Of a DNA stretch of 16,623 bases, positions 13,144 to 13,217 are shown piece after piece. The number at the start of each line of letters is the position of its first letter. The stretch's first letter is position 1. A model generated the notes under the pieces. It saw only the letters and a program-made list of their open reading frames with translations, ran no database searches and was not told where the DNA came from. This DNA is from Bacillaceae bacterium OF18-1A (GTDB lineage Bacteria > Bacillota > Bacilli > Bacillales > Bacillaceae_G): contig JAQEWB010000009.1 of assembly GCA_027694045.1 (NCBI GenBank), positions 74,218 to 90,840 on the forward strand, in the 5' to 3' direction. A program made the translations under genes and the position numbers.

Positions 13144-13217
13144 ATGATGCAGGTAGGGTTAATTAGTCTAGGGAAAATAGGACTAAATTTGGCGGACATG
13201 CAGTAGAAAAGAAATAA
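13144..13217 (+). pseudogene. gnd: Internally deleted remnant of 6-phosphogluconate dehydrogenase gene
   Basis: AAGGAGG at 13131-13137 introduces ATG 13144. The reading MMQVGLISLGKIGLNLA is the NADP-binding start of 6-phosphogluconate dehydrogenase, normally GLIGLGKMGxNLA. It is then interrupted. In another frame the same DNA reads KFGGHAVEKK and TAA (13215-13217), which matches the C-terminal end of the short (about 300-residue) form. So about 16 N-terminal and 10 C-terminal codons remain, and some 270 codons between them are gone. The two parts meet in AAATTTGGC, which could encode either side. The Gly-to-Ser and Met-to-Ile changes suggest drift since the loss. Position between zwf and tal supports the identity. 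Nothing functional can be made from it. Confidence 0.88.

What the first reader, a model, noticed from the sequence alone, without database searches (positions are those of the whole stretch)
13144..13217. gnd reduced to its two ends between zwf and tal
A 74-bp scar keeps the ribosome site, the first 16 or so codons of 6-phosphogluconate dehydrogenase and its last 10 codons (KFGGHAVEKK). zwf, tal and pgl stay intact. The oxidative branch encoded here would then stop at 6-phosphogluconate, so the strain must use another gnd or route carbon differently.
Basis: partly seen in the sequence, partly recalled or inferred. Interest (0 to 1): 0.7.

Follow-up and report, generated by a model that had tools for sequence, protein, structure and literature searches.

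The report
Deletion scar of a gluconate-pathway gene
A Bacillus strain has lost almost all of one enzyme gene in its sugar-oxidation gene cluster, leaving only the two ends; this looks like an ordinary dead gene, because relatives also lose genes from this cluster while keeping other copies of the enzyme.

Summary
Between an intact zwf and an intact tal lies a 71-bp remnant (13147-13217) with the first 14-15 codons and the last 9 codons plus stop of the short, NAD-type 6-phosphogluconate dehydrogenase (TIGR00872, ~297 aa). Neither end matches by chance (0 of 2,000 shuffles). Intact orthologues exist in the B. cereus group. Against them ~823 bp are missing and the ends lie in different frames, leaving a 20-codon ORF. 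Two of 9 near-invariant remnant residues have changed, against 2 of 182 in Zwf: a drifting remnant rather than an assembly gap. A short repeat at the junction (2-7 bp) is possible but unproven.

That the pathway must stop or be rerouted is only partly supported. The source genome is not held, so another gnd could not be sought. A published survey reports a further gntZ cassette in 16 of 22 tested B. cereus strains (PMC4896439, passages). Three relatives without an intact gnd between zwf and tal each keep a full-length 6PGDH elsewhere. Verdict: real, most likely natural, ordinary deletion pseudogene.

The parts
11602..13095 (+). zwf, glucose-6-phosphate dehydrogenase, 497 aa, intact
   Evidence: PF00479 1-183 of 183 and PF02781 2-296 of 296, TIGR00871 over cut-off; GATGDLAK and RIDHYLGK present
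13131..13137 (+). AAGGAGG, ribosome-binding-like site kept in front of the remnant
   Evidence: read directly
13144..13206 (+). 20-codon ORF left over: MMQVGLISLGKIGLNLADMQ, then TAG
13147..13191 (+). N-terminal remnant of the gnd_rel (short NAD-type) 6PGDH, codons 1-15 at most, with S for G7 and I for M11
   Evidence: score 60 of 74 to the P0227 start, 0 of 2,000 shuffles reach it; G7 and M11 in 120 of 120 listed homologues
13186..13192 (+). deletion junction AATTTGG: 2-7 bp may fit both ends
   Evidence: compared with the ends of intact gnd in 17 rows of loci; exact parent DNA not held, so inferred
13188..13217 (+). C-terminal remnant FGGHAVEKK and stop, in another frame than the N-terminal remnant
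   Evidence: 50 of 50 to the P0227 end, 0 of 2,000 shuffles
13261..13929 (+). tal, transaldolase family (TIGR00875), 222 aa, intact, with a ribosome-site-like stretch of its own
   Evidence: PF00923, TIGR00875 over cut-off
14237..15304 (+). pgl, 6-phosphogluconolactonase family (7-bladed propeller), 355 aa, intact
   Evidence: PF10282 2-344 of 344; best NCBIfam hit NF050136 is under its cut-off (338.6 of 500 bits)

Best explanation
It is a natural internal-deletion pseudogene of the short NAD-type 6-phosphogluconate dehydrogenase in a zwf-(tkt)-gnd-tal cassette. Shown: both ends remain, they are out of frame, and intact orthologues with the same two ends exist in the B. cereus group; against a 297-codon gene about 823 bp are absent. 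Inferred: the deletion arose by slippage or end joining, perhaps across a short direct repeat; the remnant then drifted; no 6PGDH is made here; and the step is covered by another 6PGDH elsewhere in the genome, so zwf, pgl and tal stay useful.
For: Both ends far above shuffles. Intact proteins P0226 (B. toyonensis), P0227 and P0239 with the same two ends. Two of 9 near-invariant remnant residues changed against 2 of 182 in Zwf, Fisher p 0.011. The same cassette shows gene loss elsewhere: G010, an Ectobacillus funiculus by its contig length, keeps only the last 58 aligned codons of gnd, and only the first 17 codons of tal align; L006 and G361 give no tkt or gnd hit between zwf and tal; L002 and L007 give no tkt hit. 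G010, G361 and G005 (genome of L006) each keep at least one full-length 6PGDH elsewhere. Further gntZ cassettes in B. cereus strains (PMC4896439, passages).
Against: No genome of the source strain is held and no B. cereus-group genome came out, so neither a second gnd nor the exact parent DNA was seen. The repeat is weak: on the N side 12 of 17 rows have AAC and 5 AAT for the Asn codon, and all 17 have TTA for the Leu codon; these would leave 2 or 5 bp of overlap, and 7 only with a TTG seen in none. Zwf shows little sign of relaxed constraint (3 private changes against 0-2 in four relatives). The 6PGDH that would cover the loss was not found under a B. cereus-group name. G010 has several zwf matches (5), so its locus is one of several there.
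Confidence: 0.9

Rival explanations
1. The strain really lacks all 6PGDH: the oxidative branch makes 6-phosphogluconate as an end point, and carbon reaches pentoses only through the non-oxidative branch or another route from 6-phosphogluconate.
For: gnd is gone here, and tkt and gntP give no hit better than E 3 in the window. Three B. cereus strains grew poorly or not at all on gluconate, and the authors tie this best to the cassette that holds zwf, gntZ, tkt and tal (PMC4896439, passages). One search listed no long 6PGDH under a B. cereus-group name (120 of 7,999 rows shown).
Against: zwf is intact and constrained and pgl is intact. In the held family of G010, 17 of 19 genomes have a full-length PF00393 match. 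Tested B. cereus strains are reported to hold further gntZ cassettes, one of them in 16 of 22.
Confidence: 0.07
2. Assembly error or collapse across the gene.
For: Cannot be excluded without reads; the genome is not held.
Against: Two residues invariant in 120 of 120 listed homologues are changed in the remnant.
Confidence: 0.03
3. The 71 bp are a kept regulatory leader or small-peptide gene in front of tal.
For: A ribosome-binding-like site and a 20-codon ORF remain.
Against: No Rfam match at the scar up to E 1; no terminator-like site between zwf and tal; the gap in the two relatives with adjacent zwf and tal (L006, L049) has a different sequence; no match in plasmids or phages.
Confidence: 0.03

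Closest known systems
gnd_rel, short NAD(+)-dependent 6-phosphogluconate dehydrogenase (TIGR00872; YqeC type, that link recalled)
   Same: Both ends of the remnant match this family; intact P0227 scores 490 bits against a cut-off of 297.2
   Different: About 823 of 894 bp are missing and the ends are out of frame, so no enzyme can be made
B. cereus gluconate cassette 'system IV' (gntP, gntK, gntZ, pgl, zwf, tkt, tal; PMC4896439, passages)
   Same: zwf, a gnd remnant, tal and pgl lie together; a published variant in four strains also lacks gntP and tkt
   Different: gnd itself is a scar here; tkt and gntP give no real hit in the window; gntK was not searched with a query of its own, but none of the 17 ORFs scanned with Pfam was a gluconate kinase. 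That the gntZ of system IV is the short type is inferred from the gene order
   Same: gnd cut down to a fragment beside an intact zwf
   Different: There the last 58 aligned codons of gnd remain, tkt is intact, and only the first 17 codons of tal align

Membership tests
TIGR00872 gnd_rel | N-terminal GLGKMG nucleotide-binding start | tested here: not met
   SLGKIG in the scar; GLGKMG in 120 of 120 listed homologues
TIGR00872 gnd_rel | full ~297-aa open frame | tested here: not met
   71 bp from the start codon, two frames, 20-codon ORF
TIGR00872 gnd_rel | family C-terminal end FGGHAVEKK | tested here: met
   9 of 9 residues and stop as in P0227
deletion pseudogene | both ends of a known gene at the place where relatives carry it intact | tested here: met
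   zwf-gnd-tal in L002 and L007; zwf-tkt-gnd-tal in L001, L003, L004, L005, L009; zwf-tkt-gnd without a tal hit in L008 and L059; not in L006, L010, L057, L058
deletion pseudogene | loss of coding constraint in what is left | tested here: met
   2 of 9 against 2 of 182 near-invariant sites changed, p 0.011; small numbers
short-repeat deletion | one copy of a direct repeat at the junction, two in the parent | tested here: inconclusive
   AATTT at both ends in 5 of 17 rows only, AATTTGG at both ends in none; parent DNA of the species not held
conserved regulatory leader | same element in relatives | tested here: not met
   no sister strain could be read

The most novel reading that the evidence does not exclude
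The lineage keeps zwf, pgl and tal but no 6PGDH at all, running an oxidative branch that ends in 6-phosphogluconate for NADPH or as a signal, with the 20-codon remnant acting as a leader for tal.
Probability: 0.03. Interest if true: 0.5.

Novelty: new member of a known kind. Interest (0 to 1): 0.15.

Why it matters
It is a clear case of gene loss inside a central-carbon cassette that seems to be trimmed repeatedly in Bacillaceae, and it warns against reading pathway capacity from one locus. By itself it changes no view of the pathway.

Tried and rejected
Whole-genome search for another gnd: no genome held. Relatives from the B. cereus group: none among the 10 loci from genome contigs, the 19 genomes of the family of G001 or the matches in 397 genomes of the order; best Zwf identity 81%. 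Scar or its surroundings searched in phages, plasmids and viral contigs (exact 33 bases): no match. P0227 against plasmids: 362 records with a match, 12 at 80-90% identity (the listed ones in Priestia, Peribacillus, Paenibacillus, Bacillus subtilis and Cytobacillus), no B. cereus-group record among the 20 rows listed; so plasmid-borne copies of the short enzyme exist, and one in the source strain cannot be excluded. Search with a long NADP-type 6PGDH: no row named for the B. cereus group among the 120 listed of 7,999, many rows unnamed; this cannot settle absence. Rfam on 11300-14300: four weak matches, all under their gathering scores, none at the scar. Promoter scan: 8 found against 10.9 expected; not used. 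Literature searches (listings) showed no paper on this scar; most subscription journals are not in that library. Proteomics paper PMC7236355 (passages) names a 6PGDH in B. cereus tsu1, type not stated. Microhomology as a firm mechanism: dropped to a possibility on rechecking.

Full report
What is there. Between zwf (11602-13095) and tal (13261-13929) the window has 165 bp. In it lie a ribosome-binding-like AAGGAGG, ATG at 13144 and 13147, and MQVGLISLGKIGLNL in one frame, overlapped by FGGHAVEKK-stop in another. Neither match arises by chance: scores 60 and 50, against at most 29 and 25 in 2,000 dinucleotide shuffles, and at most 24 and 14 elsewhere in the window.

Which gene it was. A protein search with the gnd of L001 lists six rows, among 120 shown, that belong to the B. 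cereus group by name or near-identity: P0224, P0225, P0226 and P0228 (B. toyonensis), P0227 (Bacillus, several species) and P0239 (name cut off after 'Bacillus cere'). The three I read, P0226, P0227 and P0239, start MRVGLIGLGKMGLNLG and end NEFGGHAVEKK, 297 aa. P0227 belongs to TIGR00872, the short NAD(+)-dependent 6PGDH (490 bits, cut-off 297.2), the type called YqeC in B. subtilis (that link is recalled). The window's Zwf is 92% identical to an unnamed cluster of 421 members and 88% to one named B. cereus, so the source is most likely in the B. cereus group; the species could not be fixed.

How it was lost. A 297-codon gene has 894 bp with its stop; 71 are left, so about 823 are missing if the parent had the usual length. 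That shifts the frame: the remaining ORF has 20 codons. The junction reads AATTTGG. In the 17 rows (16 distinct genes; L060 repeats L001) the N-side codons are AAT TTA in 5 and AAC TTA in 12, and the C side is GAA TTT or similar. If the parent was like these, the overlap was 5 or 2 bp; only a TTG, seen in none, would give 7. A chance overlap of 5 or more is about 0.011, of 7 or more about 0.0013. So a repeat-driven deletion is possible but not shown. G7 and M11, present in 120 of 120 listed homologues, are changed to S and I: 2 of 9 near-invariant sites, against 2 of 182 in the intact Zwf (Fisher p 0.011; small numbers). Zwf itself has 3 private changes, against 2, 0, 1 and 2 in P0001-P0004, so it shows little decay.

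The same cassette in relatives. Full zwf-tkt-gnd-tal stands in L001, L003, L004, L005 and L009; zwf-tkt-gnd, with no tal hit, in L008 and L059. L002 and L007 have zwf-gnd-tal without a tkt hit; by eye a tkt-like end (WKLFSQ, WELFSQ) is left in their gap. L006 (Peribacillus kribbensis) and G361 (L058) have zwf-tal only; G361 keeps, by eye, a tkt-like stretch (NPGHPDLPMGAA). L010 has zwf with neither neighbour. Among the rows shown, two matches to the short type carry an in-frame stop (G193, G347). Of the three genomes whose locus lacks an intact gnd, G010 has three full-length 6PGDH elsewhere, G361 one, and G005 (that of L006) one, plus two short ones. In the family of G010, 18 of 19 genomes have a PF00393 match and 17 of 19 a full-length one (G016 has only the short type, G026 none).

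What it means. PMC4896439 (passages) describes in all its B. cereus genomes a 7-gene cassette with gntP, gntK, gntZ, pgl, zwf, tkt and tal, lacking gntP and tkt in four named strains; gntRKPZ orthologues in 8 of 22 tested strains and 8 further genomes; and a like cassette without the regulator in 16 of 22 and five further genomes. Its supplementary tables were not seen, and whether its gntZ genes are of the long or short type was not checked. PMC4518329 (passages) states that B. [quoted passage not shown] subtilis, so the short enzyme can carry real flux and its loss need not be neutral. Together the likeliest reading is loss of one isozyme with others kept; the source genome was not available to prove it.

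Verdict. Observation confirmed; interpretation partly supported; an ordinary deletion pseudogene in a cassette that is often trimmed. On rechecking, the repeat-driven mechanism was weakened from 5-7 bp to 2-7 bp; the odds of the main reading are unchanged, as they do not rest on it.

Noticed in passing
window 7237-7813 (+): A GDSL/SGNH-type hydrolase gene appears in pieces in two frames with a stop between: two pieces match PF13472 positions 1-56 and 57-146, the third piece has no Pfam match; a second likely pseudogene in this window.
   Followed up: partly
window 808-1128 (+): A 106-aa ORF whose start looks like a GNAT acetyltransferase and whose end looks like a short-chain dehydrogenase (recalled resemblance; no Pfam hit): perhaps another internal-deletion scar.
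   Followed up: partly
window 4797-6124 (+): IS200/IS605-type unit: the TnpA ORF matches only the second half of Y1_Tnp (61-121 of 121) before a TnpB that matches guided_TnpB over cut-off (NF040570).
   Followed up: partly
   Followed up: yes
L002 7473-7590, L007 7465-7583, L049 2979-3123: The gaps after zwf hold short tkt-like stretches by eye, as if tkt had been deleted there independently (sequence; no BLAST hit).
   Followed up: partly
plasmid records H1-H12: The short gnd lies on plasmids of Priestia, Peribacillus, Paenibacillus, Bacillus subtilis and Cytobacillus at 80-90% identity to P0227, so this enzyme gene travels.
   Followed up: no
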